From Vairimorpha apis BRL 01 (Eukaryota; Microsporidia; Nosematidae): a DNA stretch of 52,642 bases. The stretch spans positions 6,794-59,435 of the forward strand of contig KE647332.1 of the NCBI GenBank assembly GCA_000447185.1, read 5' to 3'. The notes beneath the pieces were generated by a model, which was given only the letters and a program-made list of their open reading frames with translations, was not told the DNA's origin and ran no database searches. Positions within the stretch are counted from its first letter, which is position 1. Every line of letters starts with the position of its first letter. The translations under genes and the position numbers were made by a program. Below are positions 4,181-52,253 of the stretch, piece by piece.

Positions 4181-4932
4181 ATGCATAATCAAGTAAATAC
4201 AAAAAATAAACAACCTGATAATAATAATTCGGATTCTAATATACATTTAGAAAATGAAAATATATTAGAAATAACTGAAGTTCAACAGGAATTTGTAGAA
4301 GCTTGAAATAAAATAAACCAAGAATTTCTTTTTTTGAGAAATCAAATTAAAAATGAAATTTGGGCGAGTGAATTTGATTTAAAACAAGAAAATATTGAAT
4401 TTGAAGATGATATTGATTTCAATAGGTTTCATTCCAATAATTTTTTAATTAAAAAACAAATCAATTTCAACATGAAATTATACAGCTAGAAACTACAATA
4501 AATCATGACATTTCAGATCAAAGCCAAAGTGAAGAAAGCAATCAAAAAACAAGTCAACCTCAACATGAAATCATACAACTAGAAAATGAAATAAATTATA
4601 TTATTTTAGATCTAGATTATGAAAATGATAAAGAATTACATTGTCTTGAAGAGAAAAATATAAAACCATTAAATGAAATTAATAAAGAAAAAATACAATT
4701 TTTAAAAGAAAATAGCCAAGATTTTACATCACAAAAAAAAGGTAATTTTTCTTTTTATTGGTCAAAATATACTAAACAGTTACGAAGAATAAGCATGCAT
4801 AATTTTATAAAAATTTCAATAATATTTTTGGTCATAATATTAATTCTTTATTTTATTTTCTTGTTCTATTTATTGTTCAATTATGAACTTACTTTAAAAC
4901 GAGAATTTAAACAATTATTTAATATAAATTAA
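4181..4932 (+). pseudogene. single-span membrane protein of the cluster, broken by a TGA and a frameshift
   Basis: A CC-containing start context (4171-4172) precedes an ATG at 4181. The frame is interrupted by an in-frame TGA at 4304-4306 and by a one-base loss in the A run at 4451-4456. Beyond these breaks it continues to a TAA at 4930-4932, giving about 250 residues. The middle is acidic and Gln/Glu-rich. A near-repeat of HEII-QLE occurs twice (around 4470-4500 and 4560-4590). A basic patch then leads to one strong hydrophobic segment (about 4800-4885) and a short tail. The TGA is not explained by a homopolymer, so this is probably a true pseudogene, or TGA replaced TGG by one substitution. 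It belongs to the cluster by architecture only. Confidence 0.55.
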
Positions 4933-6228
4933 TTTAAAAAGTAATTATTTTTATTTCATTAAATAATAAAACCTATAAGTTTTTTTTATTTTTTTTTTTA
5001 TGACATTATATATTTACAAAAGATTTCATTTAATCATTAAAAACAATTTTATTACTTAAATTAATGGTGATACTTGTTATAAAATATACAAAAAGTATTG
5101 CACACAATTATTTTAATAAAACTAACAAAAAACATAATAGAATATAATTTCAATATTGTATAAGTTTATGTTAAAAAAGTATTACGATTATAAAAAATAA
5201 GAATTAATAAATGTTATTATTTTATATTTTAATTTAATGTTTAAAGAAAATATAATTGATATATGTTTGTTAGTAAAAAAGATGTTAATATTTCAACAAT
5301 TTGCTAAAATAATAAGTTTAATAAATGCTTATAATTAGAACCATTTATCAAAAGAGCATAAAATTTTTAACTATTAACTTTTTTTACTATACTTTTAAAT
5401 CAAGAACAATTTTTTTTGTTACAATTCAGAATTAATAATAAAAAACATTACTAAATTCAAAAGAATTTTTATTAAAAATTAGGATTTTTTATATTATTTG
5501 AGAATATAAGAATATCTTTTTTTGTTTATATTTAAAAAAATTTTAAAATAATAGAAAATCGAACTAATTCATTTATCACAAATTTATCAAAGAAAGATTT
5601 TAATATATTGTATTTTAAAATTAAATTTTTAGACAAATTTTTTAAATTATTTGTAAATCTTTCAAATAAAAAATAAAATTAAAAATATAGAGTAAATTAA
5701 AAATTTGAATTTTAAAATAATATTAACAATTAAAAAACAATTTAAGAAACATTTAATTTTATAAAATATATTGAAAATTATCTTTTTTCCTTTTTAATAA
5801 AATATATATACAAATCAAAATGAAAAATAACTAATTATGGAAATAATTATATTTAAAATTAATTAATAGTGTTAAAAATTTATTTGCAGACTAGTTCTTT
5901 ACCTAAACAATAAAAAGTTGTTAATTATAAAAAATATGCAGATGATCATTAAAATTATTTTTAATAAAAAATTAAACTATTTAATTTTAAACTTATTATA
6001 TTAATATAAAAATTTTAATATTTGCTTAATTTTTGAATCAAATTTTAAATATTAAAACTTTTCTTTATTTAATTTATTAAATTAAAACTTAACATAAATT
6101 AGTAATATTAAATTATTAAAAATGTATACTTGTAAAAAATTTAATTAAAATAAACTAATAGATAGTGTGAAATAAATTATTTATGATTTTAATTTTTTTA
6201 AATAAAAATTTTAAGAATAATAAAATAA
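4933..6228. other. gene-free A+T-rich spacer
   Basis: No open frame with protein-like composition, repeat array or RNA gene is seen. Confidence 0.55.
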
Positions 6229-6231
6229 CCC
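6229..6231 (+). promoter_or_regulatory. CCC start-proximal signal
   Basis: CCC lies 4 nt before the ATG at 6236, in a context otherwise lacking C. It is the microsporidian start signal seen before most genes here and supports this short gene being real. Confidence 0.6.
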
Positions 6232-6235
6232 TTAT

Positions 6236-6535
6236 ATGAATACTTATAAAATAACATCTAATAAAGATTTAGAAAATAACGAAATATGCTTAAATATTCA
6301 ACAAGAACTCGAAAATATTGAAAATTTTGTAATTAATCCAGAAAATAGAAAACACTCTTTTGTTCAAAATTTTACATATATATCTAGTAATAAAAGTACT
6401 AAAAAAATTTTTAAAATATGCATATGTTTATTTATGATTGCAATGATACTTTTATCTATTATGTTACTTCATATTTGGTATTCTTCATCCAATTATTTTT
6501 TGAAAACTAACAGTCATATTAAATTATTGTTTTAA
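6236..6535 (+). CDS. small single-span membrane protein (99 aa)
   Basis: This is an intact 99-residue frame with CCC 4 nt before its ATG. Residues 1-50 are polar, with several Asn, Glu and Gln. A Lys-rich patch (residues 53-60) precedes one hydrophobic segment (about 59-81), and a 17-residue tail follows. There is no N-terminal signal peptide, so insertion by the C-terminal span (type II or tail-anchored-like) is likely. It resembles its neighbours in size, start context and layout, but shows only weak residue identity to them. No known family is recognised. Confidence 0.6.
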   Translation: MNTYKITSNKDLENNEICLNIQQELENIENFVINPENRKHSFVQNFTYISSNKSTKKIFKICICLFMIAMILLSIMLLHIWYSSSNYFLKTNSHIKLLF

Positions 6536-8036: not shown

Positions 8037-8387
8037 ATGAATTACGAGCAATTATATACTGTAAATAATAAATCGGTATATAAAGATACTTGTATAGATA
8101 TAATAAAAGATATTGAAAAATCAACAGATAAAAATCAAAATAATTTAAATGAGATATCAAAAATAATGGAAAATACCTCGGTAAAAAATAATATGTTACC
8201 TATAAAATATAGTAATATTGTGTATAAATGTAAAAAATACAGAAGTCTTATAGTTTTATGTTGTATTATATTTAGTTTTATAATTCTACTTACATTTTAT
8301 GGATTATTTGTTTTTATTTATAATAAGTATTATACAGAATGTGAAACAACGATTAATTTTAATGAACCCATATCATACATGTTGTAG
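8037..8387 (+). CDS. small single-span membrane protein, paralogue of the gene at 16944-17313
   Basis: An intact 116-residue frame. Residues 13-21 hold a VYKDTCIDI motif, residues 50-56 a KNNMLPI motif, and residues 64-69 a Cys/Lys/Arg-rich patch before one hydrophobic segment (about 70-95). The far side contains YYTECET (about 98-104). The minus-strand gene at 16944-17313 has the same motifs in the same order (VYNDTCVDI, KNILP, a Cys-rich patch, one span, FYPEPET), so the two are clear paralogues. The gene at 25975 shares the early PMYED/VYKD motif. Function is unknown; the conserved N-terminal motif and acidic far side are the only handles. Confidence 0.7.
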   Translation: MNYEQLYTVNNKSVYKDTCIDIIKDIEKSTDKNQNNLNEISKIMENTSVKNNMLPIKYSNIVYKCKKYRSLIVLCCIIFSFIILLTFYGLFVFIYNKYYTECETTINFNEPISYML

Positions 8388-9691: not shown

Positions 9692-10030
9692 TTAATCATA
9701 TTTTAATTCACAAGTCATTTTTTTATAAATTGGCTTAACCTCAAATGGTTTTTTAACTCCAAAATCTAAAGGGAAAATAATATTTAATAGTAATGAAATT
9801 AAATATAAACATCCTAAAATTAATGCAATATAAAATAAAATTATTAAACATTTTCTAAGTTTAGAATCACAAATTTTATTATTTAATTTAAAATAATTGA
9901 AAAATGAATTAGTTGTAGTATCATCAATATTTTGTTCTAAATATACTAAATTTTTAGGTGAATTTTTATTATCTGATACTTCGTTGTAATTATAATTGCT
10001 AAATTTTCCCCCATTATTTTTATTGTTCAT
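9692..10030 (-). CDS. small single-span membrane protein, paralogue of the gene at 18337-18663
   Basis: An intact 112-residue frame; CCC (GGG at 10035-10037 on the plus strand) lies 4 nt before the ATG. The first 50 residues are Asn-rich. K-x-RKCLIIL begins the hydrophobic segment (about 60-86), which includes LISLLL and ends at IIFPLD. The short C-terminal side has KKM-x-C near the end. The gene at 18337 shares all of these (KKCLIILLYI, LISLLLDI, CFPLD, KKM-x-C), so they are recent paralogues. The membrane span and its flanks are conserved while the N-terminus has diverged. That suggests the span and C-terminal side carry the conserved role. Confidence 0.7.
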   Translation of the reverse strand: MNNKNNGGKFSNYNYNEVSDNKNSPKNLVYLEQNIDDTTTNSFFNYFKLNNKICDSKLRKCLIILFYIALILGCLYLISLLLNIIFPLDFGVKKPFEVKPIYKKMTCELKYD

Positions 10031-16943: not shown

Positions 16944-17313
16944 TTAATAGAAATAGCTACAACTTATATCTTTACTAGTAAAATTTTCATATATTTCACA
17001 TAATGTTTCAGGTTCAGGATAAAACTTTTTATACCAGAAAATAAATAATAAATAAGATAAATAAATAATCCACAGACCAAATGTTATACATCCAATAACC
17101 ATTAAACTTTTTAATTGATCACAGTTGCAATTTATAAAAGTTTTTTCTTTAGGCAATATATTTTTTTTTGAACCAATAATTTTATTTTTTTCTGTTGTTC
17201 TATCTAGTATGTTATTATTTTTTCCGTTATTATTTCAATCTTCTCTTGAATATCTACACAAGTATCATTATAAACTGGTTTAAAATTTTTTTATTAAATT
17301 GGTAATGATTCAT
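16944..17313 (-). CDS. small single-span membrane protein with two homopolymer frameshifts
   Basis: The ATG at 17313 is preceded by CC 5 nt away. Reading requires one extra base in the T run at 17286-17292 and one in the T run at 17218-17223 (A runs on the coding strand). With both, a 123-residue protein results. It follows the paralogue at 8037-8387 along its whole length: VYNDTCVDI near the start, a Lys/Asn-rich middle, KNILP, a Cys-rich patch, one hydrophobic segment and FYPEPET on the far side. A shorter frame from 17156 contains only the membrane part and would need a TTG start. Either the gene is decayed or the runs are miscounted or slipped over; conservation on both sides of each shift favours a protein that is or was recently made. 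Confidence 0.6.
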
Positions 17314-18336: not shown

Positions 18337-18663
18337 ATGAATCACAAACATAAAAATAACAAAAATAGTTTTAATTTTCAATCAGATGACAAAAACATAC
18401 CAGAAATAAATGAATTAACTCAATTAAATAATACAGATGATAAAAATAAATCGACATCAAATGAATTTGTTTTTAAAAAGATATATTGTTTTAAACTTAA
18501 AAAATGTTTAATCATTTTACTTTACATTGTCCTGATTCTTGTTAGTTTGAATTTAATTTCATTACTATTAGATATCTGTTTTCCTTTAGATGTTGAAATA
18601 GCAAAAATGTTTAATATCAGGTCTAGACATAAAAAAATGATTTGTAAACATAATTATCATTAA
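18337..18663 (+). CDS. small single-span membrane protein, paralogue of the gene at 9692-10030
   Basis: An intact 108-residue frame with CC 4 nt before the ATG (18331-18332). Residues 1-48 are polar and Asn/Asp/Lys-rich. The KKCLIILLYI stretch opens the hydrophobic segment (about 57-81), followed by CFPLD and a basic end with KKM-x-C. These features match the gene at 9692-10030 closely, whereas the N-termini align poorly. No signal peptide is present. Function is not recognised. Confidence 0.7.
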   Translation: MNHKHKNNKNSFNFQSDDKNIPEINELTQLNNTDDKNKSTSNEFVFKKIYCFKLKKCLIILLYIVLILVSLNLISLLLDICFPLDVEIAKMFNIRSRHKKMICKHNYH

Positions 18664-19910: not shown

Positions 19911-21288
19911 CAACAATTAAAATTTTCTTTTTTTTATGTAAGAACAAAATATAATCTTATTGTGACTTATTTTATATCAGTTTAGATTCTTGTATCTACT
20001 ATTATTTCAACTATTTCTTTTGAACTTACTTCTTGAACTAATTGTCTTGTAATTTATTATAATCTATAATTTAAACCAATAAAAATTTAAATTTTTTTAT
20101 ATTGGAAATTTTTACAAACTAATAGTTTTAGTGTTTTTAAAATTACAAATACTTTTTTTAATAAAATTTTTGTTCTTATATGAATAATAAATATATTTGA
20201 CAAATATTAATAATCTTGTTTCTATAATTATTTAAATATCAAAAAAAATATACTTATTATAATTATATTAAAAAAATTATTTTTAAAATTAAATATGATT
20301 ATGATTTTTTACAAGTAGGTTATTTATTTTAAATAAATAAAGATTAAAATTGTAATTTTTATAAATGATTTTTTTTGTTAAGTAATTATATAGCTTACAA
20401 ATTTATATTGTAAATTGTATATTTATAAGTTAAAAAGAAATAACAAAGTTACATTTATTTTTTTATATATATTAAAAATGAAAAATTTTCATATTATATA
20501 AATAACAAATACAAAATAAAAATATGATTCAAACCAAATAATTTTTTATGTTTTAAGTGTTATATAATATTTTTTAGTATATTTTAATCTTAATAAAATA
20601 TTTAATTTTTTTATCATATAACTTTAAAATTTTTTATTTATAGATGTGAAATAAAAACATGATTAAAACCAAATATTTTTGATAATTTTTGTTCGTAAGA
20701 ATATTTTTTAATTATTTAACTTAATTTATACATATATAATGTTTTATTTAATTTTAAATGTCAGAAAATGTTGATTTTTTACAAAAATGTATAATAAAAA
20801 AAAATAAAAATACATATTTATACATATAAAATAACGAATGATTTAAATTTTTTTTTACATAAAGTGAATTTATTATATAATTAAAAAAAATAAATAATAA
20901 AAAACACATAGTGTTAATTATTTAAAAAATATAATTTTATTTTATTTTGTATAAAAATTTTAAAAATTTTATTAATTATTATATAAAAACAGGTAAATAA
21001 TTATTTTTATTGAACAAAATTTAATTAAAACTATTATAAACTATAATTTCTTTTTATTAACAAATAATAGTAATAAATAATTAATAATTTGTACTTTTAG
21101 TTTTCTTTTTAATAAATTTTTAATTAAACAAATTAATTTCTCTTATATTAAAATTTTTAAAGTTTTTAAAAATATAATTTTTACATTAAAAAAAAATGTT
21201 TTTTGTTGATATACATTTTTTAATAGTTGTCATTTAATTTATTTTAATTAATATCATACACTATAATGCAAATTATTAATGAATTTTA
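19911..21288. other. gene-free A+T-rich region
   Basis: No supported feature. Confidence 0.55.
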
Positions 21289-21291
21289 CCC
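21289..21291 (+). promoter_or_regulatory. CCC start-proximal signal
   Basis: CCC is followed 4 nt later by an ATG at 21296. It marks a start upstream of the first long open frame (21331) and implies that the true N-terminus is in a different frame. Confidence 0.5.
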
Positions 21292-21295
21292 ATTA

Positions 21296-21980
21296 ATGAC
21301 ATTCAAAAAAAATATTTTAGAAATTACCTAATGGAAATAAATTTTAAAAATTTAGAAGAACAACAAAAAAATTTTTCTTTTGATAAAAAATATAACAATA
21401 TTGAAACACAAACATTACGTGAAATAAAACATACTATAATCAATATAGATAATTTAATAGACATGATTAATCAACTTGATGATAAAAAAAGACATAAAAA
21501 TGAAATAGATTTAAATGTTAATAATTTAGAAAGACAAAACACAAATTTAAAACAATATAAATTAAACATTAATTTACAACCTGATTATGAATTAAAAAAA
21601 CTTTAAAACCAATTGAATTATTAAAATCACATTATGATTTAGTAAAATCTAATAATAATGTTTATAAAGCTGAACAATCAATTAAAGACATAGTACAAAC
21701 TTTAGATATTATTATAGAATCAAAAAATGAAGCTTTTGAAAAAAATCTTTCTTTAAAAGAACAAAATTCAATCAAAAATATTGAAAATGATATTATTTCA
21801 ATAAATAATATTGAAGACTCGGATGAAAGTTGTTATAAGAACTTGTATTGTTGTTTTATATTTTTAAAACTTATTTTATATATTCTTATTATTTCGTATT
21901 TGTATTATAGTCTTTTTAATTTTAATTTATCTATAGAATCTTCTGATATGAAAAAAAATATTTTAACTTCAGAAAGTTAA
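21296..21980 (+). CDS. coiled-coil protein with one C-terminal membrane span, two homopolymer frameshifts
   Basis: The CCC-marked ATG at 21296 joins the long frame starting at 21331 if the A run at 21305-21312 is one base longer. A second added base in the A run at 21594-21600 carries the frame to the TAA at 21978-21980. The result is about 228 residues. Most of it is Glu/Lys/Asn/Leu-rich, helical and heptad-like. A Cys-rich patch (SCYKNLYCC, near 21828-21855) then leads into one hydrophobic segment and a 25-residue tail. The layout is that of the small membrane proteins, with a much longer cytoplasmic-type helix, as in a tethering or SNARE-like protein. I do not see a SNARE motif with the central Gln/Arg layer clearly enough to claim one. 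Confidence 0.55.
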
Positions 21981-23765: not shown

Positions 23766-24646
23766 ATGAAATTTTTTTTTAGTATAATAAATATTATAAT
23801 AGTATTTTCATCAATGATTAAAATAAATACATATACAAAAGAAACAATATCGATAAAATTTGAAAAACTTATAAAAAATGGTACCTTTTGCAAAATTTTA
23901 TTAGATAAAAGATCTTTGATGCAGCAAAATCTTGATACTGATGGATATAGTGATTTAATTTTTGATAATATTGATAAATATATTTACGATGCATTTGTAG
24001 AGCGTTATGGTAATTTAGAATCTAATATTATTATTAAGATTGAATTTTTAAATCCTATCGAAAAAAATTGTATTAAAGAAGTTTTAAGCAGTATATTTGA
24101 ATTATTTTATGAGAATTGGATTTTAATTAAAAAAGAAAAAGAAAGTAATATTATATTTTGTATAAAACAATTAATTTTAGAAGAAAATATTATTAAAAAA
24201 GAGTTTGAAAAAATGTTTAAAGATGAAAAAATTTATGAAAATCATGATTTATTATATAAAATTAATGAAAATTTTTTAATGTTTCCATTTGTGGATAATC
24301 TTTCACAAGATACAAATAAAAATAATTCTATTTATTTTCAAAAAACAAAAATTATGATAATAATTTTTCAATAATTAGTTCTGAACTGTATAAATCAATT
24401 TCTAAAGCAGAATTTAATGTAAAATCTGAAATACAAATTTATAAAAATGATTTATTTAATTGTATACGTAATTATTATAATATTATAATCAAACAATTAA
24501 GATTAAAAGTTTTTAAAAACAGCAAAACTGCTTTTAAGATAGTCAAATCTCTTTTAAATGATACTACTATCGAATTAAAAAATGATCTTCATATTTTTTT
24601 TAATGAACTTGAAATTTCATTCTTTAAATGCCTTTTAGATAATTAA
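23766..24646 (+). CDS. predicted secreted protein, paralogue of 12540-13280, one homopolymer frameshift
   Basis: The N-terminus (about residues 1-22) is a hydrophobic signal peptide or anchor. The first 202 residues are in one frame. Adding one base to the A run at 24340-24345 continues the protein to a TAA at 24644-24646, total about 293 residues. The extension aligns with the C-terminal part of the minus-strand paralogue (YKN-x-L then I-x-x-Y), which shows that it is genuine coding sequence. The central GNLES, NPIEKN and ENW-x-LI motifs match the paralogue's equivalents. There is no CCC before the ATG. No known domain is recognised; a lineage-specific secreted pair is inferred. Confidence 0.65.
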
Positions 24647-25974: not shown

Positions 25975-26280
25975 ATGAATAATAAAAAATCGATTTGTGA
26001 ATTTACAAATCCAATGTACGAAGATATATTTACAGATAAAAACCAACATGAAAATGTGTTTGAAAATAATATTATACAATCTATAAATATAAATCAAAAT
26101 GAACAAGAGAAAAATTTTATCTCAAAATTTTTGATAGGAATTAAATATTTTTTTAGCAAAACCATATGTTTAAATTATAAAATAATTTTAGCAATATTTT
26201 TATTTATAATCTTTGGATGTGCTGTTTCGTTTAAAGTTTTTTTATTAATTGGAAATTGGTATGTTACATATTCAAATTAA
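25975..26280 (+). CDS. small single-span membrane protein (101 aa)
   Basis: An intact frame with the CCC signal. Near the N-terminus, residues 12-18 read NPMYEDI, comparable to KSVYKDT at 8037 and KPVYNDT at 17313, which ties this gene to that subfamily. The middle is Asn/Glu/Gln-rich. A basic, Cys-containing patch (about 60-69) precedes one hydrophobic segment (about 69-92), and only about nine residues follow it, so it is close to a tail-anchored protein. No known domain. It is the last member of the cluster. Confidence 0.6.
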   Translation: MNNKKSICEFTNPMYEDIFTDKNQHENVFENNIIQSININQNEQEKNFISKFLIGIKYFFSKTICLNYKIILAIFLFIIFGCAVSFKVFLLIGNWYVTYSN

Positions 26281-27247: not shown

Positions 27248-27969
27248 TCATAGATCATAAAAATAAAAACAAAAACCAAAAATTCTCATTATACGTTTCT
27301 TCATATTTTGTTTTTTCATTTTATTATTTTCTTTAATTTCAAAGTCACAAGATTTAAGATGTTCGTTTGTTTCAATACTATAGCAATTATTTAAATAATC
27401 ATATGTGCAAAATTCGACGTTTGTAAATTTTACTAAGTCTTTTTCAACATTTAAAACGTAAATTTTGTCGCTTCCTTGAACATAATTATTTATATTATTT
27501 ATTTCATTTATACATATGCTAATATTATTATTTTCATCGTACTTTTCCTCATTATTATTAATTGATTTTTTATAACGCATACCAAAAAATAAATGTGAAA
27601 TCAATTCTTTTAAATTATTAAAAATTATCTGTTCTTTTTGATAATTTTCTAACCCAGATCTAGTTATCATATATGTACGTTGAAATATATAACTACCATT
27701 ATTTAAATGAATAATGAATATTAAGTTTTGAAAATTTTTTGTTTTAGGACAGTGAATAATACAGTATCTATTTTCTATATCATAAAATATAAATTCACTT
27801 TTTTTTCTAATAAATTTAATCGCTCCATATCTGAACTTTCTATCCATTCGTCTTTTAAAAAAATATCTATTTTATTAATTTTATATGCGCAATTTTCTAC
27901 GTCAAATTTTATAAAATGCGAGTCTTCAACTGGAACCTCTTGTAATATACCATTATAAGATGCTAACAT
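27248..27969 (-). CDS. unknown protein, possibly SH2-like, one homopolymer frameshift
   Basis: CCC (GGG at 27977-27979, plus strand) lies 7 nt before the ATG at 27969. This frame closes after 64 residues. A second frame, 27847 to 27248, continues the protein. They join as one 240-residue product if the T run on the coding strand at about 27858-27864 is one base longer, giving a smooth FFKRRMDRKFRYG passage. The middle has a basic RYGAIKFIRKK stretch, FIFYDIENRYCI, an extended hydrophobic IFIIHL strand, FQRTY and a helix reading FNNLKELISHL. The last resembles the closing helix of SH2 domains, but I cannot find the phosphotyrosine-binding FLIR arginine clearly, so SH2 is only a suggestion. The C-terminus is Lys-rich, then aromatic. 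Confidence 0.55.
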
Positions 27970-29487: not shown

Positions 29488-30844
29488 ATGAGTAACGACT
29501 GTGAAAAAATAAAATCTGAGCTAGAAAAACATAACATTAATCTCGATATCAAATACGAAGGTGAATACGAAACATTTCTACTTAAACATTCTTTAAAACA
29601 TAAAGTATTATTATCTTTATACAATAAATTATATCCATACGATTTAGAAGTAAACAAATCTCTTAATTTTTGCAAAAATTCAATTGACTATACAATAGAA
29701 AATAAAAAAACAATTTTATCGGATATAAATTCAATAAAAAAGTATCTAATATTGTTGAATTAATATTAGAAAAAAATGTATTAATTAAAGGATTATTGGT
29801 GAATATTAATTATAATATTAATCCATATCTTAATTTTCTAAAAAAATAAAAATTGATTTCGACTATAGATTTGTAACTGACAACATAAATAATATTTATG
29901 TTGTTATTAATAAAAATTCTATTGAATGTAATAGTGCAGAAAATAATAAAGATAAAATTTTACCTAAAAATTCTGATGAAGTATATGATATTAATAGAAA
30001 TACTGATGATTTTAAAAAAGAAAATAAAATTTTATTTAAGAATAAAACACAAATAGAAAATAAAATCATGTTATACGAACTACAAAAACACACAAAAGGT
30101 TGTCTTAAAGAAACTTATATAACAACTGGAAAATATAAAATACAAATATGTACAACAAAATTTATTATAGATTTTTACGATAAATATTTTATATCAAAAG
30201 AACAGAATTTCTCAGTATCAGATATTTCATTTTGCATACGTGAATATTTAGATAGAAATGGATTTTTAGTATATTTCAATGTAAATTTAATAGATTTTAT
30301 TTCTTATATTATATATTTACAAAATAAAAATATGTATACTATAATTAATATTTTAAGATTATTTTTACGTTTTAAATTTTATGGTGTTACTTTAAATATA
30401 AATAAAGAAGATTTTGAATTTAATACAAATGATAATTTCATTTTGATTATTTTAAATGGAATTAAATTCATTGAAAGGTATCCTGATAGAGAAATTATAA
30501 ATAGACTTAAATTACTAAATGATAAAGTTTATAAACAGTTTTATCTTAATGTAAGTACATCTTACAATAAATATATTAGTATTAACGACATGCTTTCATT
30601 TATTTATTATGATGATTATGATGTTATACTTAGTAATAAATATATACATGGAGGTAAAAAAATTGAATATAAAGAAAAAAAATTAGATAATGTATTTGAC
30701 TTTAATGATAAAAGATGTTTTATGTTTTATAGTAGAGTTAATGATATGTTGCTTATAAAATACAAAACAGAATTTAATTTTAATTTTTTTATTATGTATC
30801 TAATAAGCATATCAAATTTTAGTTATATTAAATTTAATAAATAG
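29488..30844 (+). CDS. unknown 452-residue protein with two homopolymer frameshifts
   Basis: A CC-containing start context precedes the ATG at 29488. The first frame ends after 91 residues. One extra base in the A run at 29736-29741 and another in the A run at 29840-29846 reunite it with the long frame ending at 30844, giving about 452 residues with no other stop. The N-terminal third is Lys/Glu-rich. The central part (residues about 120-190) is Asn/Asp/Lys-rich and probably disordered. The C-terminal 250 residues alternate hydrophobic helices (an FLVYFNVNLIDF stretch near 30256) with polar turns, look globular and lack an obvious membrane span. A HGGKKIEYKEKK stretch is notable. I do not recognise the family. 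Confidence 0.6.
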
Positions 30845-32319: not shown

Positions 32320-32715
32320 ATGTCATCAGAAGAATACTCTCCAATTATAGAACAACAATATACATTAAAAGATGCTCTTATACAAGCTTGTAGGGCAGCA
32401 AGAATAAGTAATAACCTTGTATGTGGTGGTAGACAATCAGTTAAAAAAATTCTAAACAATGAAGCTAAAATAGTTCTTGTAGCTAAAGATTGTGAACCAA
32501 GGATACTAACAATAGCAAAATCATTTAGTGAAAAAAATAAAATACCAATTATTAGTATTGAAGATAGAAAAGAATTAGGACAGATCGTTAGATTTGAGAA
32601 AGTCAGTTCTAGTGGTAAAGTTAAAAATAGTGGATGTGGAATAGCTGTTATAAGAGATTTTAATGAGAAAACTAAAGCAACAGAATATATTTTAAATGAA
32701 TTAGTTGCTCAATAA
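32320..32715 (+). CDS. RPS12: 40S ribosomal protein eS12
   Basis: An intact 131-residue protein of normal length. It has the L7Ae/L30e-type fold: [19 protein letters not shown] (residues 19-37), then the strand [10 protein letters not shown] (51-60), the [14 protein letters not shown] stretch (75-88) that corresponds to the IPLI-x-VDD-x-K-x-LG signature of eS12, and the closing [10 protein letters not shown] (105-114). In the ribosome it sits in the beak of the small subunit. The absence of any frameshift here, in a highly expressed gene, contrasts with several neighbours. Confidence 0.93.
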
Positions 32716-34155: not shown

Positions 34156-34629
34156 ATGAGCAATAAAGATAGACTTTTGACTGAACTTCAAAATATAAAA
34201 AAATCAAGAAAATACTTATTTTATGCACATCCCTCAGTAAAAACAAATATATTATCAAATTGGAATTGTGGTTTTCCTGGTCCAGATGAAGAGTTGTATA
34301 AAAATTCTTATTACACTCTTATATTTAAATTCCCTCCAACTTATCCATTTAATCCACCTACTATAATGTTTAAGAATTTTGTGTATCATCCAAATGTATA
34401 TAAAAATGGACATGTTTGTTTAGATATAATTCAAAGTAAATGGAAACCAAGTATGAATGTTATGAATATTTTGACAGCTTTACAAAGTTTTCTTGTTCAA
34501 CCCAATGTAAAAAGTCCTGCTAATGCAGAGGCAGGTTATTTATATGTCAAAGATAATAAAAAATATTGTGAAAATGTTAGATTAAATATAATAAAATATC
34601 ATACTAAGTATGATTTTGATAAGATATAA
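34156..34629 (+). CDS. UBC2: ubiquitin-conjugating enzyme E2, Rad6/Ubc2-like
   Basis: An intact 157-residue E2 core. The family landmarks are in order: helix 1 (residues 4-16), W36 and GPDEELY (42-48), YPFNPPT (63-69), the HPN motif (78-80), catalytic Cys88 in GHVCLDI, W96-x-P, the IL-x-x-LQSFL helix, P-NVKSPANAEA (about 116-127) and the C-terminal helix. Cys88 is at the same number as in yeast Rad6, and SPAN-x-EA is Rad6-like, which is why I prefer Rad6/Ubc2 over Ubc9 or Ubc4. It carries ubiquitin from the E1 to an E3 or substrate. No acidic tail is present. Confidence 0.88.
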   Translation: MSNKDRLLTELQNIKKSRKYLFYAHPSVKTNILSNWNCGFPGPDEELYKNSYYTLIFKFPPTYPFNPPTIMFKNFVYHPNVYKNGHVCLDIIQSKWKPSMNVMNILTALQSFLVQPNVKSPANAEAGYLYVKDNKKYCENVRLNIIKYHTKYDFDKI

Positions 34630-36292: not shown

Positions 36293-37473
36293 TTATTGAA
36301 ATTTAGGAGGTTCATTTTTAGTTTCTCTAAACATAGATGTAATAACTATTAAAAATAAAATCATAAATAGACTGTAGAAAAAAAACATTAAGCGATCAAT
36401 ATGATTATGTAATATCTTTAAAATGCAAGAAATTATAAAAGCTGAAAACCAATTTGTAGCAATTGTTAATCTTAAAGCAGAATTTACATAATCAGGAGGA
36501 AATATTTCATTTGTAATAAACCAAGGAATTGAAGCCATTCCAATATTAAATCCAAAAAATAAATAAATAAAATAGTTAAATTAACAAAATCAAAACCCAT
36601 TATGAATGTAGAAAGTGCCATCAACACAGTACTAATAATAATCATGATTTTTCTACCAAGTTTATCTATAAATGAACAGCATATAATTGAAATTAAAGCT
36701 GAAAATGATAATGAAAGTATTGATAACAAACCAGGATTTTTAAAATCATACAAAATTTCTTCCAAAGAAAGTGATAAATGATCTATTCCACTTGCATGTT
36801 GAGCTATATGAAAACTTAATGCTAAAAATACAGATTTTTTTGCTCTAGGATCTTTAATTAATTCTTTTATAGACGAGTGTTCATGATCAAGACTTAGTGT
36901 TTTACCATTTGAAATTAATAATAATAATACTGTATGAATAACAATCAAAAATGATATAATCAAAAATATCCAAAAATAATAAACATCAGAAAACACAACA
37001 TCTAAAATTTTACCAATAACAAGTCCAAGAACAATTCCTATTGAATGAAAAGACATAAAAAACCCTCTTTCAGTTTCATAAGTTATTCCAAAAATATAAC
37101 TAGGTACAGTATAACATGTAACACCAGCAGCAAAACCAACTAAACAACGACCAGCCAATAATACAAAGCAATTTTTAGAAAGAATTGTAATAAATGAACC
37201 TACTAGGTATAAAAAATTGTTGTAAATTAATAAGTTCTTTCTTGAAATATTTTTAACTAAATATATAAATAGACTGCAGGTAAAAGCACCTAAAAAAACA
37301 ATAAACGTGAACATACTTTCAAAATAAATAAAATCTAATTTAAATTTATAACTATTATAACTTTTCTTTAATACGTCAGATAAACAACTTGAAGACGTTT
37401 GAAATAATCCGTATATAAATGAAGAAAGCGCAGCTATAACTGAATTAAAAAATATCTTTGATTTATCTTTCAT
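36293..37473 (-). CDS. MFS sugar transporter (SLC2/hexose-transporter-like), one homopolymer frameshift
   Basis: CCCC lies 2 nt before the ATG at 37473. The protein continues from the first frame into a second (ending at 36293) if the T run on the coding strand at 36554-36559 is one base longer, giving about 393 residues. Landmarks: GRCLVGFAAG (TM4 region), QHASGID in the TM7 position where sugar porters have QQ-x-SG, DKLGRK after TM8 (the GRK/D-x-x-GRR loop signature), and GMASIPWFITNEIFP across the join, matching the G-x-x-x-x-PW-x-x-x-EIFP signature of TM10. About 11-12 spans are visible. It would import hexoses from the host cell across the parasite membrane. It is slightly short for the family; the PESPR motif is not recognisable. 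Confidence 0.82.
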
Positions 37474-42272: not shown

Positions 42273-43990
42273 TTTATTTATTTTAAAAAATTAAAACATA
42301 TAAATGTGTTATAAAAAAAATTATTATAAAAACTTTTAAAAATTTTAATTTGTTTTGAAATGTTTTATGTTTTTATTTGTAGGAAAAAACATTTATAATT
42401 TAATTTAACAACATAATTATATTTTTAAGTAATTCTAAAAAATTTAAATTTTTAATTATAATGATTAAATAAAAATTTATTTTATTTATATATAAAAAAT
42501 ATTAATTTTTATTTAAATTAAACTCTTATATTACGAACTACAATTTTTTTAGTCGTGTGTTTAATCAAATTTTTATAGTATTAAACTCTTAATTATTGTA
42601 ATGTTTGTTTTATCAAAAATAATGATTTAAGCATAAAGTTATAAAACTATATTATTTTTTTATAAAGCAATTTTATTTGAACTCAGCGTTTTTCTCATAA
42701 AAGGGTTTTTTAAATGTTAAAATGATTTGAGTTTAGATGTATGTTAATATATTACAAAAAAATATATTAAATCCTTTAGCTTAAAATTATAAATATTTTT
42801 CAATTTATCACAAAATAAATATTTTATAATATTAATATAAAAAAATACTTACAACAACATTTTTTAAAATGAATAGAAGGTTAATTTTTTTAATTGTAAT
42901 TGTAAAAATTTAAACTTATAATTAACACACTAATATAAGTTTTTAAAATGTTTAAAGGCTTTTATGTTACTGATTTTATAAATATTTTAATAATATATAC
43001 AATATTTTTTATAGCAATAAAATTTTAGATACCTAAATTATTTTTACCTCTAAAAAGTAATACTGTAAAAAAAATAAATTAAATTTAATACTTTAATTTT
43101 ATTTTTATTTCATATCTTAATAAAAAATATATATATTGTTTATTTTTAAATAAAGTATTTATATATTTAAATAATTTATATAATTGTCATAAGAAATAAT
43201 AATAAAATAAATTTTTTATTTTTATAAAAAATTAACAAATTTTAATGTATTAATTTTAAAAATACAATCAAGTATTTGAATTTAATTTTTAGAATATTTT
43301 ATAGAAATAATTTGTCTCATTTTAATAAAAAAAAGCTCACATTATTTTTAAGGAATTTTAATTAAACAATAAGATGAAAAAATTTAATTTAAAATCTATA
43401 TTTTAGATATGTTTTGAAAAAATTTCTATATTAATAATTTATAAATTTACAGCATGTAAATATTTGTAATTTAAGAATTTTTCACTGTTATAATAATCTA
43501 TGAAATTATAAAATATATATTTTTTACTTTAAAATTTGCAAAAACATTAACCGTAAATTTTAAAATATTTTTATTAATTTTGATAAGAAAAAATAATTTT
43601 TTTATAGTATAAAACAATAAATTTAAATTAACTTCAAACACAACTTTTAAAAGAAGATTATTGTAAAAAAAAATATTTTTTTTTAGATAACTTTATCTTT
43701 AAATTGTTTTATTGGATATTAAAAATTAAAACTTCAATTATTTTTTTTGATGTCATTTTTAAAAACCATTTATTTAAGGTATTTTTTAATTAAAAGGAGA
43801 AATTTTGTTTTTGAATCATATATAAAACATAATTTGTAAATTGACAATAATAATAATGCTTTAATAATAAATACCTCATAAAAATCAAATTATTAACAAA
43901 TTATTAACTAAATATCAAAAAAATTAATTAAACAAAACTCAATAGGACAAAAAAATAGGAGTTTAAAATATAAAAACAAAAAAAATTAGC
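42273..43990. other. gene-free A+T-rich region with an orphan start signal on the minus strand
   Basis: Near 42685-42705 the minus strand reads AACCCTTTTATG followed by MRKTLSSNK-like codons, then stops. It resembles a real start context but leads to only about 12 codons. Nothing else is seen. Confidence 0.35.
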
Positions 43991-43994
43991 TAAC

Positions 43995-44875
43995 ATGAAA
44001 TTCATTCCAGTATTATTATTCTCCTGCTTGGTATATTCCAAAACAGATGATAAAAATAAATCTAAATTATTTAGTTTTTTTGATTCAGGTAGCAAAGATA
44101 ATAAGTTATCAACAAATGAAAGTTCTTTAAGTGATTCAAATCTTAACGAAAATAAGAATACTTTAAAAACTTCTGAATTATTTGGATCTAAATCTAAAGA
44201 TTCTTCTACTTCCATGTTATTTGGTAGCAAGTCAGATAAAGATATAAATCTCAAAGATTCTAATGAAAAATCAACTGATCATTCTGAATTAATGGACAAG
44301 GATAGTAAATTAACTAAATATATAATTCCAAACGAAAAAAACAAAGATAAAGATTCTAAATTAATGGACAAGGATAGTAAATTAACTAAATATATAATTC
44401 CAAACGAAAAAACAAAGATAAAGATTCTAAATTAATGGACAAGGATAGTAAATTAACTAAATATATAATTCCAAACGAAAAAAACAAAGATAAAGATTCT
44501 GGACTAATGGACAAGGATAGTAAATTAACTAAATATATAATTCCAAAAGAAAAAAATTCTGATAAAAATAGTAGTTCTTTACATAAATCTCAGTTATCAG
44601 AATCAAATCTATCTGATAAATCTAAATCTACGGCTTTGGAATCAAATAAAGATAAAATTTCACCATTGAAAACATCAAACTTATTTGGTTCTAAAGCTAA
44701 AGAAGATGACGATCAAAAAAATTCTAGTAAATTGTGTTGTGGAAATTCTGATAGTGCACCTTCTGAAGATGTTTCTACTGAATCTCAAAATTCTTCTAAC
44801 TCATCAATGTCATCAAATGAAAGTGGAAGTGAAACTAGTTCGAGTAGTGAAAGTTCTGAAAAACAAACTCAGTAA
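43995..44875 (+). CDS. secreted Ser/Lys-rich repeat protein, one homopolymer frameshift inside the repeat array
   Basis: Residues 1-16 are a signal peptide (MKFIPVLLFSCLVYS). The rest is Ser/Lys/Asp/Asn-rich with LFGSKS motifs, four copies of a 24-residue unit that begins LMDKDSKLTKYIIP, and a Ser/Glu-rich tail with a CCG pair. The frame closes in copy 2 because its A run (44407-44412) has six bases where the sister copies have seven. With seven, one 293-residue protein results. Microsporidian spore-wall and polar-tube proteins can have such a secreted, repetitive, Ser/Lys-rich plan, but there is no identifiable member here. No CCC precedes the ATG. Confidence 0.65.
44289..44560 (+). repeat. 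four tandem copies of a 72-bp (24-residue) unit
   Basis: Units begin at 44289, 44361, 44432 and 44504. Spacing is 72, 71 and 72, the 71 being the missing A. Copies 1-3 are otherwise identical base for base; the last diverges at its end. Confidence 0.9.
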
Positions 44876-45751: not shown

Positions 45752-46902
45752 ATGACAAATTCTGATGATAGTTCACAAAATTCATATGAATCTATTAATC
45801 TACAAAATAGTGAAAATAATATTTTAATTTCTAATCTAAAAGACAATAAAATTAAACAACATGATGAAACATGTACTGAATCTTTAGAAGAATCTTCTAT
45901 TAATCTACAAAATAGTGAAAATAATATTTTAATTTCTAATCTAAAAGACAATAAAATCAAACAACATGATGAAACATGTACTGAATCTTTAGAAGAATCT
46001 TCTATTAATCTACAAAATAGTGAAAATAATATTTTTAATAAACAAGTTAACAAAAAATTTAAAAAAGAAACTTTACATAATGTAATTTCTAATGATTCTG
46101 CTAAAACAAATTTAAATAAAGATAAGCTATCTGAAAATTATAGTAATGGTATCGTATACATTGAAAATTTAAAAAATGAAGAGTCTTCTTTAACATCTCA
46201 TTCAAAAAATAAAGAAGATTTAGAAAAAGCAATTATTAAAAAAAATGAAGTTTTTGATGATGAAAAAGATGCTAATTGTATGATTATTAAAAATAAAAAC
46301 ATAATATATATAATAAAAGCTTTAATGAAAAAAAATTTAACAATGATGAATTAAATATAAAAGATGATAATGATAAAAAATTAGAAGTTATAGATTTACC
46401 AACAGAAAAAAATAATTTTAATGATTCTAAAAAATCCAAATCTATTTTTGGTAATTTTTCAAACGAAGAAGCCAAGTTTAATAAAACTCCTAATATTTTT
46501 GATATTAAACCCTCAACAAATAGTAAAAAATCCACAAAATCTTTATTCTTAGAATCGACTGTACAAAATATTAAACAACAAGAAATTAATAGTAAAGATA
46601 CTGAAAATGAAAAATCATTAGGAGATTGTCTGTTTAAAGAAAATTGTTCATTATATAAGTACATAGATAAATGGGAAAAAATTGGAGCAGGTACAGTTTA
46701 TATTTATAAAAAGAAGTCGTTATCACGTTTAATTTTTGTTAGAAACGGATTGATGAATGTTTCTTTAGATTTTTATATTAAAGATATAAAACCATATTTT
46801 AAAGGAAAAGGTATAGGTTTTGTTTCAAATATTGGAAATGTTTTACTGATGTTTTCGGATGAATCAATACAATCAAAATTTTATGATCTAATCAAGAAAT
46901 AA
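45752..46902 (+). CDS. Nup2/Nup50-like nucleoporin with C-terminal Ran-binding domain, one homopolymer frameshift
   Basis: The first frame (to 46354) joins a second if one base is added in the adjacent A runs at 46289-46299; the product is 383 residues. Residues about 14-95 hold a 35-residue repeat. The middle is Asn/Lys-rich with SIFGNF, SLF and FDIKP, FG-like motifs. The last 90 residues begin CSLYKYIDKWEKIGAGTVYI and run through RLIFVRNGLMNVSL to a final LLMFSDESIQSKFYDLI. That is the order of a RanBP1-type domain (W-x-x-x-G-x-G-x-x-x-I, then R-x-x-x-R, then F-x-x-x-x-x-x-x-F). A C-terminal Ran-binding domain plus FG motifs fits Nup2/Nup50, at the nuclear pore basket. RanBP3 is an alternative. 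Confidence 0.7.
45791..46038 (+). repeat. tandem 105-bp (35-residue) repeat in the nucleoporin gene
   Basis: Units start at 45791, 45896 and 46001; the third is partial. Units 1 and 2 differ by one base (ATT versus ATC), so the duplication is recent. Confidence 0.9.
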
Positions 46903-48152: not shown

Positions 48153-48499
48153 ATGGAAAATTTTTCTTTAGTTAAAGATTTGCTAACACATCCAAAAAAT
48201 ATAAATATAACACTTATTATTTTATACAAACTAGAATCCAATAAAACAAAGGATAATAACATAGTAATTACATATGTCGGTGCAGATGAATCTGGATCTA
48301 TCGAGGTGTCTCTTTGGGATATTGTACTAATTCCAGGTGATATCATTTATATGCATGATTCTTATACATCTATTTTTAAAGAAAAAAAAGACTTTTTGTA
48401 TCTGGAAATGGATATGTAAGAAGAATAGGAAGTTTTAATAAAACATTTTTTGTAAGTGAAGAACATAAAGAAAAGTATGATAAAATTTATAAACTTTAA
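48153..48499 (+). CDS. SOSS complex subunit B-like single-stranded DNA-binding OB-fold protein, one homopolymer frameshift
   Basis: Residues 4-18 (LVKDLLTHPKNINI), KTKDNNIV-T (31-40), ADESGSIEVSLWD (44-56) and IPGDIIYM (60-67) follow human SOSS-B1/hSSB1 in order. The frame closes at 48419. Adding one base to the A run at 48382-48389 restores the family's next block, LFVSGNGYVRRIGSF, and runs to a TAA at 48497-48499 for a total of 115 residues. The protein is the OB domain only, lacking the Pro/Ser tail of metazoan homologues. In the family it binds single-stranded DNA at breaks and also accompanies the Integrator complex. Conservation right across the shift shows the sequence downstream is truly coding. 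Confidence 0.85.
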
Positions 48500-48618: not shown

Positions 48619-48642
48619 CGCTCCTGGAGGGACTCGAACCCT

Positions 48643-48675
<33 letters not shown>

Positions 48676-48691: not shown

Positions 48692-48699
48692 TTGAGAGT

Positions 48700-48930
48700 T
48701 ATTTTATTTGAGATTTTGGTATTTGGAAAATATTATTTGTTTTTTAATTAAATATATTTTATGTTTTTTTTAAAAAAAATATTGTTTTCTATACTTTTTA
48801 AACAAAAACCAAATATTGATAATTTTTTATTTGTTTCAATATTTTTGCTATCAAACTATGCAAAAACCAATTATTTTTTTCATTTATTCAACTCCTTTTT
48901 GTTTTACATTTATAGAAAACAAATTTTTTA
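48700..48930. other. short spacer between tRNA and the trehalose enzyme gene
   Basis: No CCC start signal is seen here. Confidence 0.4.
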
Positions 48931-48934
48931 AAAA

Positions 48935-51058
48935 ATGAAAAAATATATTTTAAGTACTGAAATAATTTATTATGTTTCTCGTTTGAATGAACAAGACGCT
49001 TTTCATGTATTAACTAATGGTAGGTTAAAACAAACAAATTCAACAACAAAATCTTCTAAAACAAATACAAAATATGAAAATGCTTTAGATGATATAAATA
49101 TTTACACAAAACCATTATATTTATGTCCTTCTTATATACATGATACACAATTTATATACATAGGATTGGTTGATATTGATTTCACTATTAAACCATCAGA
49201 TTTTTCTCAAATTGAATCTATGCTTGAATCATATAATATTATTCCAATTTTTGAACCTTTATTAAAATATAGACAAATTTATATTGATATATTAAACTCG
49301 AATACATTTTATTATACAACACAAGATTTAAACCATTTAAAGTATTTTGAACAATATAAATATCTTAATGATTTAATATATGATAAATTAAAAGATATAG
49401 TGAATGATGATACAGATTTAGTATGGTCTCAAGATTTAACATTCGCTTTAACTGCATCTAAATTTAAAAACGGTATACAAGATATTTATAAATTTAACGA
49501 ATTGATTTGGTGTGTACCATTTTTTGAAAATTTTTTAGAACAATTTTTAAATTGTAAAACACTCAATTTTTATGAAAAAAATGACATCGAAATTTTTGAA
49601 AGAGTTGTTAAACAATTTTATTTTGATAAAAAGCCTGTTCTTCCAAATTTAAATTTTTTAAACGTGGTATTAATATGTCTATTTTTAAACATAAAAAAAT
49701 GCCAGATTCTAATATTATTTTAGTTCCTAATAATAATATACATTATTTGATGTGTTGTGAAAAATATAGAAACAAATATAAAGTTCCTATTGACATATTT
49801 GTTTTAAATACTGTTACTGATTTGGAAATTATAAAGTATTGTCAATATTTAAAATGTGAAATAATTTCGCCAACATCAGATGAAAAATATAATGATTTAT
49901 TAAATTCGATTCATATTGGTTTTATAAAACAACTAAATGATGTATTTTTATATTTAAATAAACATATTATTGAAAATAGTGAATACGATTATGAAAAAGT
50001 AGCAGATGAGATTTACAAAAAAATACATTATAGTAATACTTTGAATAGTTGTAAAGATTTTAACAATAATAGTTTTCGTGAAAAAAATAAAATTATTACA
50101 ACACCTATTTTGAAGATATTGAAATATATAAAGAAAATGTTATAAACTCAATATTTCATAGTTCAAATATTGAATATAAAGGTAAAAACATAACACCAAG
50201 AGAAATAAAATACATTGATGCTTTTAAATATAAAAAAGTTATAAATGAAAAAGATTTAAATGACAAATATTTAAGAGATAATAATGATAGTACTTTAAAA
50301 TCTAGATTAGTTGAACCATTAAAAATAAATAGTACAACTGATTGGATGTGCCAAATATTAAATAGAACAATAAATACAATTATATTAGATTATGATGGAA
50401 CACTTGTAAATATTTGTGAAAACCCTGAAGATGCAGTGATTTCCGATGATGTCAAGAACATTTTAACAAATTTAAATAAGTATATTAAAGTGGTTATTAG
50501 TACTGGTCGTACACGTGAATGCATGGATAAACTAATACCATCGGATTTAGAAGTTTTTGCGGAACATTGCACCTTTAAAAGGGTTGACGGAAAATGGGAA
50601 CAACTTGACAAATTTAATATTTCTAAAATAAAATGTCTACATCAAGTTTAGAATACAAAATAGCATTATTTTATCAAAAAGAACACCAGGATCGCATTTG
50701 GAAATAAAATCTAATGGTTTTGTATTTCATTATCGTAAATGTGATCCAATTTTCGAAATTCAACCAAAGAAATTATATTATGATTTGTTGCAATTAAATT
50801 CAAATAATGTCAAGCTAGGAAAGAAAATTGTTGAATATCAACAAGGAAGTAAATCAGAAATATTTACATATTACAATAACAATTTATTAATTGCAGGAGA
50901 TGATGTAACAGATGAAGATATGTTTGATAAAAAAAAAGGAATTACTATAAAAAATTGGATTTGAAGAACAAACAAACGCTGAATATTTCGTTGAAAATGT
51001 TGAGGAATTTATAGAAGTACTAATATTACTTCTAGCTAAATTTGAAAATACAAAATAA
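48935..51058 (+). CDS. TPS2: trehalose-6-phosphate phosphatase with degenerate synthase-like N-terminus (Tps2-like), five homopolymer shifts
   Basis: Restoring the frame across the T run at 49654-49659 and the A runs at 50089-50092, 50625-50628 and 50676-50680 (one base added each) and at 50949-50954 (one removed) gives a 708-residue protein. The C-terminal third is a HAD-type trehalose-phosphatase: DYDGTL with the nucleophile Asp near 50389, STGR after VVI, RTPGS-x-LE-x-K, HYRKCDP and the final GDDVTDEDMF. The N-terminal 450 residues have the place and length of a glycosyltransferase-20 synthase domain. The substrate-binding landmarks are not recognisable, as in fungal Tps2, where the domain is structural. 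The enzyme converts trehalose-6-phosphate to trehalose, the spore sugar. All coding blocks keep conserved motifs between shifts. Confidence 0.8.
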
Positions 51059-51234
51059 AAGTTGATTATTAAATATTTATTTTTAATACTTTAAAAAATT
51101 TACATTTTAATAGCAGTTTTAGATTTTATACAAATAAAAAAATTTTAAAACACAATAAAATATTAGTATTAAAATTTTTATTTTAAACAAAATATAAATT
51201 TTATACTCCGACTATTCATATGTAAAAATAAAAA
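51059..51234. other. spacer between convergent genes
   Basis: No feature seen. Confidence 0.4.
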
Positions 51235-52253
51235 TTATTTAATTCTTTTACATTTAATTGTAATAAAATCCTCTTTTTGTTTATTATTAAATTGTTTACA
51301 TTTAAATAAAGTAAAAGGGTTTAATTTAACATTAAATTTTTTTATAAATTTTAAACTAGATTTTTCTATATTTATATCGTCACTAAAATTTAAACTTAAT
51401 AAATATTCATCTAAATCATCTAGATTTAAAATATTAAAATCATATTTATTTTCGATCCCATAATCATATATATTGTTTCTATCATTTTCAAGGCTTTTAT
51501 TATTTTCAATTTTATATTCAAAATTATTGTTTTTTTAATAATATTGACACATTTATTTTTAATTTTTATATCTTCGTTTTTAAATTTGCATTTTCTAAAT
51601 TGTTATAAATTTCAAATTCTATATTTTTATTTGTTATATTATCATCTATCAAATTTATATTATCTATACTTAGATTAAAATTTTCTTTTTCATTTTTTTC
51701 GTATTTGTTATTTCTTAATAAAAATACATAGGATGATTCAATAAAATCAGATCTACAACATAATATTTTGAATAATTTTTTAGAATTTAATTTAAGTTTG
51801 TGACTTAAAATTTTAGAAATTGGATCATCTTTAAATATACATAAGTTTTCAAAAATCCTATCTAAACAATTTTCCTGTGATTGTGTATTAATAATTTGAA
51901 CGTTAGAATCATTAAATTGGCTAAAGATGTTTTTCCATAAGTAAATTAATTTGTCATTTGTTAATATATTTTTATTTTCATTTTTAAATACAAAATATGG
52001 TGTTGACTTACTTAAACAGTAAATTAAATTGCAATTTATATATTTAAATAAAATAGTATATACAAAATCTTTAGATTTACATTTTTTTATATATCCAGTT
52101 GTGTCTAGTCGATTTATATAACATACAGATTTTTTTATTTGTAATGAAAGATAATATATTATTGTTGTTTTATAAAATAAGATATATGTATGTGTTATTT
52201 CTTTTTTTCTTTTAAAATATCTCGTGTTATAAATATATTGTATGAGATTTCAT
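51235..52253 (-). CDS. unknown protein of about 340 residues, several homopolymer shifts and no ATG in its main frame
   Basis: From 52201 down to 51582 the minus strand has one open frame of about 200 codons that contains no ATG. Adding one base each in the T runs (plus strand) at 51577-51581 and 51530-51536 carries it to a TAA at 51235-51237. Upstream, an ATG at 52253 with CC and CCC (GGG at 52271-52273) in front reaches the frame through one added base near 52231-52233 and one in the run at 52202-52208. The protein has several Cys (CYINRLD, KKCKSKD, KILCCRSD), a globular Lys/Ile/Phe-rich N-terminal two thirds, and an Asn/Asp/Glu-rich linker. It ends in a short domain with LDDLDEYLLSLNFSDD. 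I do not recognise it. The 5' end is the least certain part. Confidence 0.5.

What the first reader, a model, noticed from the sequence alone, without database searches (positions are those of the whole stretch)
4181..52253. Gene after gene is broken by one missing base in an A or T run
In at least 13 loci, two or more adjacent frames form one protein if a single base is added at an A or T run (for example 21594-21600, 27858-27864, 29736-29741, 29840-29846, 36554-36559, 48382-48389, 49654-49659). I count about 22 shifts; only one (50949-50954) needs a base removed. Protein motifs are conserved on both sides (SOSS-B, sugar porter, Tps2), so the downstream halves are real. A one-sided bias towards loss suggests either systematic undercalling of homopolymers or genomic shifts corrected by transcriptional slippage, as known in A/T-rich insect endosymbionts.
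Basis: partly seen in the sequence, partly recalled or inferred. Interest (0 to 1): 0.75.

Follow-up and report, generated by a model that had tools for sequence, protein, structure and literature searches.

The report
Sequencing errors that mimic broken genes
The broken genes are almost surely an artefact: this is an old draft genome of the honey bee parasite Nosema (Vairimorpha) apis, read with a machine that miscounts runs of A or T, and the two genes that could be checked are whole in independent data; the same errors also produced at least one false intron in the published annotation.

Summary
In detail: window genes change frame near A/T runs, mostly as if one base were missing. The cause is almost surely technical. 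The window is Vairimorpha (Nosema) apis BRL 01: a protein of that strain lies on a contig of exactly this length. Its paper describes 454 Titanium reads at 15X. Unbroken copies of the two genes I could test, a trehalose-phosphatase (99% identical) and a sugar porter (100%), exist elsewhere; all six breaks are absent there. Losses per run rise from 0.1% at 3 bases to 17% at 8 or more, without clear codon phase, and A/T runs are cut short in non-coding DNA too. Slippage or decay is not needed. By-product: the NCBI model of the trehalose-phosphatase gets past two breaks with a false 439-base intron, so the published 612 intron-bearing genes and the 'intron gain' inferred in N. apis need rechecking. 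Nine of the 11 broken segments had no independent copy to compare.

The parts
36296..37473 (-). Sugar porter gene in two frames (pieces 37473-36556 and 36598-36296); an unbroken 393-aa copy exists elsewhere
   Evidence: tblastn of P0124; Pfam PF00083 on both pieces; 392 of 392 aligned residues identical, window one base short once
48935..51055 (+). Trehalose-phosphatase gene in five pieces (48935-49657, 49654-50091, 50073-50687, 50662-50952, 50930-51055); an unbroken 708-aa copy exists elsewhere
   Evidence: tblastn of P0123; PF02358 on two pieces; 699 of 703 aligned residues identical, window one base short four times and one long once
49677..50115 (+). 439-base GT..AG 'intron' implied by the NCBI protein of V. 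apis BRL 01 (P0122); it is coding sequence in the unbroken copy
48153..48416 (+). SOSS-B1-like protein, first piece (downstream piece not tested)
   Evidence: PDB 5d8e_A, E 3.8e-11, residues 5-76 of 88 against 5-79 of 115; one missing-base shift called in this kilobase
43974..44875 (+). Lys/Ser-rich protein in two frames, with a 72-base tandem array (44209-44627) whose copies are spaced 72, 71, 72, 72: one unit is a base short in the kilobase where a missing-base shift is called
4163..4929 (+). Broken gene, three pieces
21283..21977 (+). Broken gene, two pieces
23766..24643 (+). Broken gene, two pieces
27251..27969 (-). Broken gene, two pieces
29488..30844 (+). Broken gene; two missing-base shifts called at 29 kb
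45752..46899 (+). Broken gene, two pieces; contains two copies of a 105-base repeat
51238..52249 (-). Broken gene, three pieces; two missing-base shifts called
32320..32715 (+). Ribosomal protein eS12, unbroken; best match is eS12 of PDB 6rm3
34156..34629 (+). Ubiquitin-conjugating enzyme, unbroken
   Evidence: PF00179, E 1.2e-40

Best explanation
The frame breaks are base-calling errors of 454 pyrosequencing in a shallow assembly of the Vairimorpha (Nosema) apis BRL 01 genome (17-19% G+C in what I sampled). In pyrosequencing (recalled) a run of one base is read in a single flow and its length is judged from light intensity, so long A and T runs are often miscounted, mostly as too short; at about 15X the consensus does not repair this. 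The genes themselves are unbroken. Shown here: breaks, direction, dependence on run length, loss of long runs in non-coding DNA, identity of the assembly, and unbroken independent copies of both genes tested. From the paper: the technology. Inferred: that the other window breaks have the same cause.
For: Identity: protein P0122 of V. apis BRL 01 lies on a 59,435-base contig, the length of the contig that holds the window. Technology: 454 Titanium, Celera Assembler, 15X over non-repetitive contigs; the main text has no 'Illumina' and no 'Sanger'. Independent copies: P0123 (708 aa, 10 member sequences) reads through where the window needs 5 pieces, 699 of 703 residues identical, 4 losses and 1 gain in the window; P0124 (393 aa, 14 contigs, longest 10,869 bases) reads through where the window needs 2 pieces, 392 of 392 identical, 1 loss. 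Three more distant porters (86, 82 and 46% identical) are single 393-aa proteins across that point. Bias: 79 losses to 23 gains over the window and 20 other stretches (p = 2e-8). Dose response: losses per coding run 0.0013, 0.0068, 0.014, 0.055, 0.048, 0.17 for lengths 3, 4, 5, 6, 7, 8 or more; gains 0.0007, 0.0034, 0.0046, 0.011, 0.011, 0.013. Non-coding A/T runs: chance of one more base 0.53-0.48 at lengths 2-6, then 0.35, 0.25, 0.10 at 7, 8, 9. Essential genes are hit: 5 of the 7 CCT chaperonin loci found are split, 5 of 6 joins with the offset of one missing base. [quoted passage not shown] in the N. ceranae draft, also 454, ORFs were joined in 58 cases by assuming a single-base assembly error (PMC2685015).
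Against: Only 2 of the 11 broken window segments could be compared with an independent copy. I saw protein sequences of those copies, not their DNA or reads; the source label 'lgn' is not explained by the tool and I take it (recall) for assemblies of public read sets, which might include RNA or the same 454 reads. The 10,869-base contig behind P0124 speaks for DNA, and four residue differences of P0123 speak for another isolate. Loss of long A/T runs is by itself not decisive: 19 control loci of 33-42% G+C also thin out at 7-8 bases, while two Buchnera records (22% G+C, 29 kb) do not. In the dose response each shift is credited to the longest run within 10 bases, which favours long runs; gains, counted the same way, rise too, though only to 1.3%. 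Gains are 23 of 102 shifts, which pure undercalling does not give; some are pairs of losses merged by the model, but one is a gain also against P0123.
Confidence: 0.95

Rival explanations
1. True genomic frameshifts in A/T runs, corrected by RNA polymerase slippage so that part of the mRNA is in frame, as reported for Blochmannia and Buchnera.
For: One-sided losses at A/T runs, also in essential genes, with both halves conserved; slippage is reported in A/T-rich endosymbionts (passages of PMC3017870).
Against: Independent copies of both testable genes are unbroken. 66 of 79 losses have no run of 8 or more within 10 bases. In three Blochmannia genomes only 8, 4 and 4 genes carry such indels (the tract lengths at them I did not see); here about 1.1-1.2 shifts per kb of coding DNA and 50 of 98 segments. 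Non-coding runs are shortened as well, which slippage does not explain.
Confidence: 0.02
2. Real gene decay (pseudogenes) in a shrinking parasite genome.
For: About half of the coding segments are broken, and the window has what looks by eye like a decayed retroelement copy at 974-1379.
Against: Chaperonin subunits are hit; pieces stay collinear with, and near-identical to, an unbroken copy; each piece of the two tested genes is open over about 95 to 337 codons, the last trehalose-phosphatase piece (42 residues matched) apart.
Confidence: 0.01
3. Programmed ribosomal frameshifting at A/T runs throughout the genome.
For: In principle a missing base can be made good by a step back on a run of A or T.
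Against: No clear codon phase of the runs at losses (25, 15, 18 starting at codon positions 1, 2, 3, against 566, 485, 520 for all coding runs of 5 or more), and at least 63 of 76 coding runs of 8 or more carry no loss; unbroken copies exist.
Confidence: 0.005
4. Spliceosomal introns, as in the published annotation (612 of 2,771 genes called intron-interrupted).
For: The NCBI model of the trehalose-phosphatase uses a GT..AG intron of 439 bases; the paper reports donor and acceptor consensus sequences. Some N. apis introns are probably real: another paper lists L19 and S4 as intron-containing in N. apis (PMC5012567 passage).
Against: The stretch removed in the one model I could test encodes about 146 residues that are present, 99% identical, in the unbroken copy; N. 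ceranae has six intron-bearing genes, all ribosomal; the paper places the N. apis introns 'in random places'.
Confidence: 0.01

Closest known systems
454 pyrosequencing homopolymer errors in A/T-rich drafts (PMC3277595; N. ceranae draft, PMC2685015; passages seen)
   Same: A/T runs, rate rising with run length, a large share of genes frame-shifted in low-G+C genomes, adjacent ORFs matching parts of one protein
   Different: Here the load is high (1.1-1.2 shifts per kb of coding DNA, 50 of 98 segments), which fits 17-19% G+C and 15X; [quoted passage not shown]
Transcriptional slippage at poly(A)/poly(T) in Blochmannia and Buchnera (PMC3017870, passages seen)
   Same: Single-base indels in A/T tracts of otherwise intact genes in a reduced, A/T-rich genome
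   Different: Bacteria, few genes, and the short run is taken to be in the DNA. Here a eukaryote, half of the coding segments, mostly runs under 8, and the shift is absent from independent copies of the two genes tested

Membership tests
Homopolymer undercalling artefact (454) | Indels sit at homopolymers and the rate rises with run length | tested here: met
   with the caveat that each shift is credited to the longest run within 10 bases
Homopolymer undercalling artefact (454) | Bias towards missing bases | tested here: met
   79 of 102 shifts, p = 2e-8
Homopolymer undercalling artefact (454) | Non-coding runs affected as well as coding runs | tested here: met
   the control limits its weight
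Homopolymer undercalling artefact (454) | Independent sequence of the same species lacks the shift | tested here: met
   6 of 6 breaks in 2 genes, from proteins only; 9 other broken segments not tested
Homopolymer undercalling artefact (454) | Assembly made from 454 reads without accurate polishing | tested here: met
   paper passages and word counts
Homopolymer undercalling artefact (454) | Raw flow values or other reads at the runs show the longer length | not testable with these tools
   no reads held
Transcriptional slippage (endosymbiont type) | The frameshift is present in the DNA of the organism | tested here: not met
   2 of 2 genes tested, through independent proteins
Transcriptional slippage (endosymbiont type) | Long tracts (about 9 or more; the threshold is recalled) at the shift | tested here: not met
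   66 of 79 losses have no run of 8 or more within 10 bases
Transcriptional slippage (endosymbiont type) | Mixed-length mRNA | not testable with these tools
   no RNA reads held
-1 ribosomal frameshifting | Fixed codon phase of the slippery run | tested here: not met
   25, 15, 18 against 566, 485, 520
Spliceosomal intron (trehalose-phosphatase model only) | Removed stretch is not coding | tested here: not met
   it is coding in the unbroken copy

The most novel reading that the evidence does not exclude
A minority of the breaks (not the six tested) are true single-base losses in the N. apis genome that are tolerated through slippage or recoding, which would be a first for a microsporidian so far as I recall.
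Probability: 0.03. Interest if true: 0.65.

Novelty: not a real feature. Interest (0 to 1): 0.2.

Why it matters
The breaks say nothing about the biology of the parasite, but they matter for users of the record. V. apis BRL 01 is used in comparative work (for example the ortholog set in PMC11592040, passage). At 1.1-1.2 shifts per kb of coding DNA, 50 of the 98 coding segments I sampled are split. In at least one gene the published model gets past breaks with a false intron. The published figure of 612 intron-bearing genes and the later inference of secondary intron gain in N. apis (PMC8476143 passage) may rest largely on such models; that extension is my inference from one gene. Gene counts, apparent gene losses and apparent pseudogenes from this assembly carry the same risk.

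Tried and rejected
Considered and rejected: slippage, ribosomal frameshifting, decay, introns (see rivals).

Led nowhere or weak: (1) Run-length truncation as sole proof. Of the 81 control records (L048-L128) I counted the 22 with G+C up to 42%; the 19 of 33-42% thin out at 7-8 bases as well, the two Buchnera records do not. (2) Looking for the unbroken trehalose-phosphatase in viral contigs: no relative. (3) Pfam at E 0.1 on ten further stretches: a match over its cut-off only for the second sugar porter piece; seven had no family and two others only matches under the cut-off. (4) V. bombi as the source: rejected, its assembly has 57 contigs at 28.7% G+C and used Nanopore and Illumina. (5) My first guess of a noisy long-read assembly (note) was wrong; it is 454. 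(6) Two literature searches listed, in the rows I saw, no paper whose title says that the N. apis introns are an artefact; listings only, so this does not show that none exists.

Rows dropped: L001 and L002 (inside the window) were left out; runs that straddle coding and non-coding calls were left out; coding segments under 300 bases were left out (84 shifts, 83 for the other stretches). The start-motif test used starts that I picked by eye: 14 of 21 first-piece or intact starts have CCC within 25 bases upstream, 0 of 6 inner-piece starts do; 7 real-looking starts, that of the trehalose-phosphatase among them, lack it. The frame model was trained on 76 ORFs of at least 180 aa from the same assembly, pieces of broken genes included.
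Full report
What the window is. It lies on contig C202 (59,435 bases) of an assembly of 5.96 Mb held in 223 contigs. Its G+C is 13.6-20.4% by 4-kb steps. Its ribosomal protein eS12 is closest to that of PDB 6rm3, which I recall as the Vairimorpha necatrix ribosome. A search with the first piece of the trehalose-phosphatase returned a protein of Vairimorpha apis BRL 01 on a contig of 59,435 bases. The assembly is therefore the Nosema (Vairimorpha) apis draft of Chen et al. 2013 (PMC3726280; passages only). The organism is a microsporidian, not a bacterial endosymbiont. The paper reports 454 Titanium reads, the Celera Assembler, 15X over non-repetitive contigs, 1,138 contigs (275 over 10 kb).

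The observation. I scored frames with a 3-periodic codon model with equal penalties for a missing and an extra base. It made no call in 40 simulated intact genes, gave the right kind in 40 of 40 losses and 40 of 40 gains, and called nothing in two simulated non-coding windows. In the window it losses and 3 gains, in 11 of 21 coding segments; in 20 other stretches (three wholly or partly withheld) 64 losses and 20 gains, 39 of 77 segments being hit; that is 1.1-1.2 per kb of coding DNA. Loss is favoured (79 of 102, p = 2e-8). With the strictest of four settings the window gives 10 losses and 2 gains.

The decisive comparison. Two broken window genes have near-identical, unbroken relatives in other collections. 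P0123 (708 aa, 10 member sequences) matches the window's trehalose-phosphatase in five successive pieces; 699 of 703 aligned residues are identical and the window is one base short four times and one base long once. P0124 (393 aa, 14 contigs, the longest 10,869 bases) matches the sugar porter in two pieces, 392 of 392 identical, one base short once. A contig of 10.9 kb is far longer than the message of a 393-aa protein, so that copy is very likely genomic. For P0123 the longest contig is 3,875 bases, which does not settle DNA against RNA. For comparison, the CCT5 gene of the same assembly, which has no break, has a 100% identical copy in the same kind of source (P0002).

The pattern of the errors. 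Losses per coding run climb from 0.13% at length 3 to 17% at 8 or more, gains from 0.07% to 1.3%; each shift is credited to the longest run within 10 bases, so part of both rises comes from that rule. The runs at losses show no clear codon phase (25, 15, 18 against 566, 485, 520). In non-coding DNA the chance that an A/T run has one more base is 0.53-0.48 at lengths 2-6 and then falls to 0.35, 0.25 and 0.10; in coding DNA 0.46-0.38 and then 0.29, 0.13 and 0.10. Two Buchnera records at 22% G+C (29 kb) show no such fall, but 19 bacterial loci at 33-42% G+C do, so the fall by itself could come from selection; the non-coding result is what argues for a technical cause. A tandem array in the window has copies spaced 72, 71, 72 and 72 bases, with a missing-base shift called in the same kilobase.

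Essential genes. Five of the seven CCT loci found (cytosolic chaperonin) are split, and five of six joins have the offset of one missing base; the sixth fits one gain or two losses. Ten of twelve proteasome matches have no stop inside, and two HSP70 loci are open frames of 701 and 684 codons. In the 20 other stretches 21 of 33 segments of at least 900 bases are hit, in the window 4 of 4. Starts of downstream pieces lack the C-rich element found upstream of many real starts (0 of 6 against 14 of 21, starts picked by eye), which fits pieces that are not separate genes.

A consequence for the literature. The NCBI protein for this gene (P0122, 425 aa against 708) is reproduced exactly by two exons with a 439-base GT..AG intron. 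The intron takes out most of the piece between two breaks, about 146 residues that are present in the unbroken copy, and the model then stops at a later break. Chen et al. report 612 of 2,771 genes as intron-interrupted, 'in random places', whereas the N. ceranae paper found six intron-bearing genes, all ribosomal, and explicitly assumed single-base assembly errors in 58 cases (PMC2685015 passages). Some N. apis introns are probably real (L19 and S4, PMC5012567 passage). A later study inferred secondary intron gain in N. apis and itself asked for further analysis (PMC8476143 passages). One gene is tested here; that many of the 612 have the same origin is my inference.

Limits. The search for homologous proteins was capped at three and all three were used, so nine other broken segments were not compared with independent copies. 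I saw proteins, not reads. 'lgn' as a label for assemblies of public read sets is recalled. Verdict: an ordinary sequencing artefact, with a useful warning about a reference genome.

Noticed in passing
49677-50115: The NCBI model of the V. apis trehalose-phosphatase contains a false 439-base intron that gets it past two frame breaks; the published 612 intron-bearing genes may contain many such models.
   Followed up: partly
6236-6535, 8037-8387, 9692-10030 (-), 16947-17234 (-), 18337-18663, 25975-26280: Small proteins with an Asn-rich first half and, by eye, one membrane segment; two are clear paralogues (9692 and 18337, 45% identical), the other four only 16-22% identical to the first. Possibly a lineage-specific family.
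   Followed up: partly
28472-29221 (-) and 974-1379 (-): A 249-aa open frame that looks by eye like the end of a retroelement protein (motif VDHMATQC), and a shorter, broken relative of it near the start of the window; no Pfam match for the first.
   Followed up: no
44209-44627 and 45791-46000: Tandem repeats of 72 and 105 bases (multiples of three) in two neighbouring Lys/Ser-rich or Asn/Ser-rich proteins; surface or secreted proteins are possible, not tested.
   Followed up: no
window, upstream of ORF starts: CCC lies within 25 bases upstream of 14 of 21 likely gene starts picked by eye (chance about 2% per start); a C-rich start element is already reported for Nosema (passages of PMC11592040).
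   Followed up: partly
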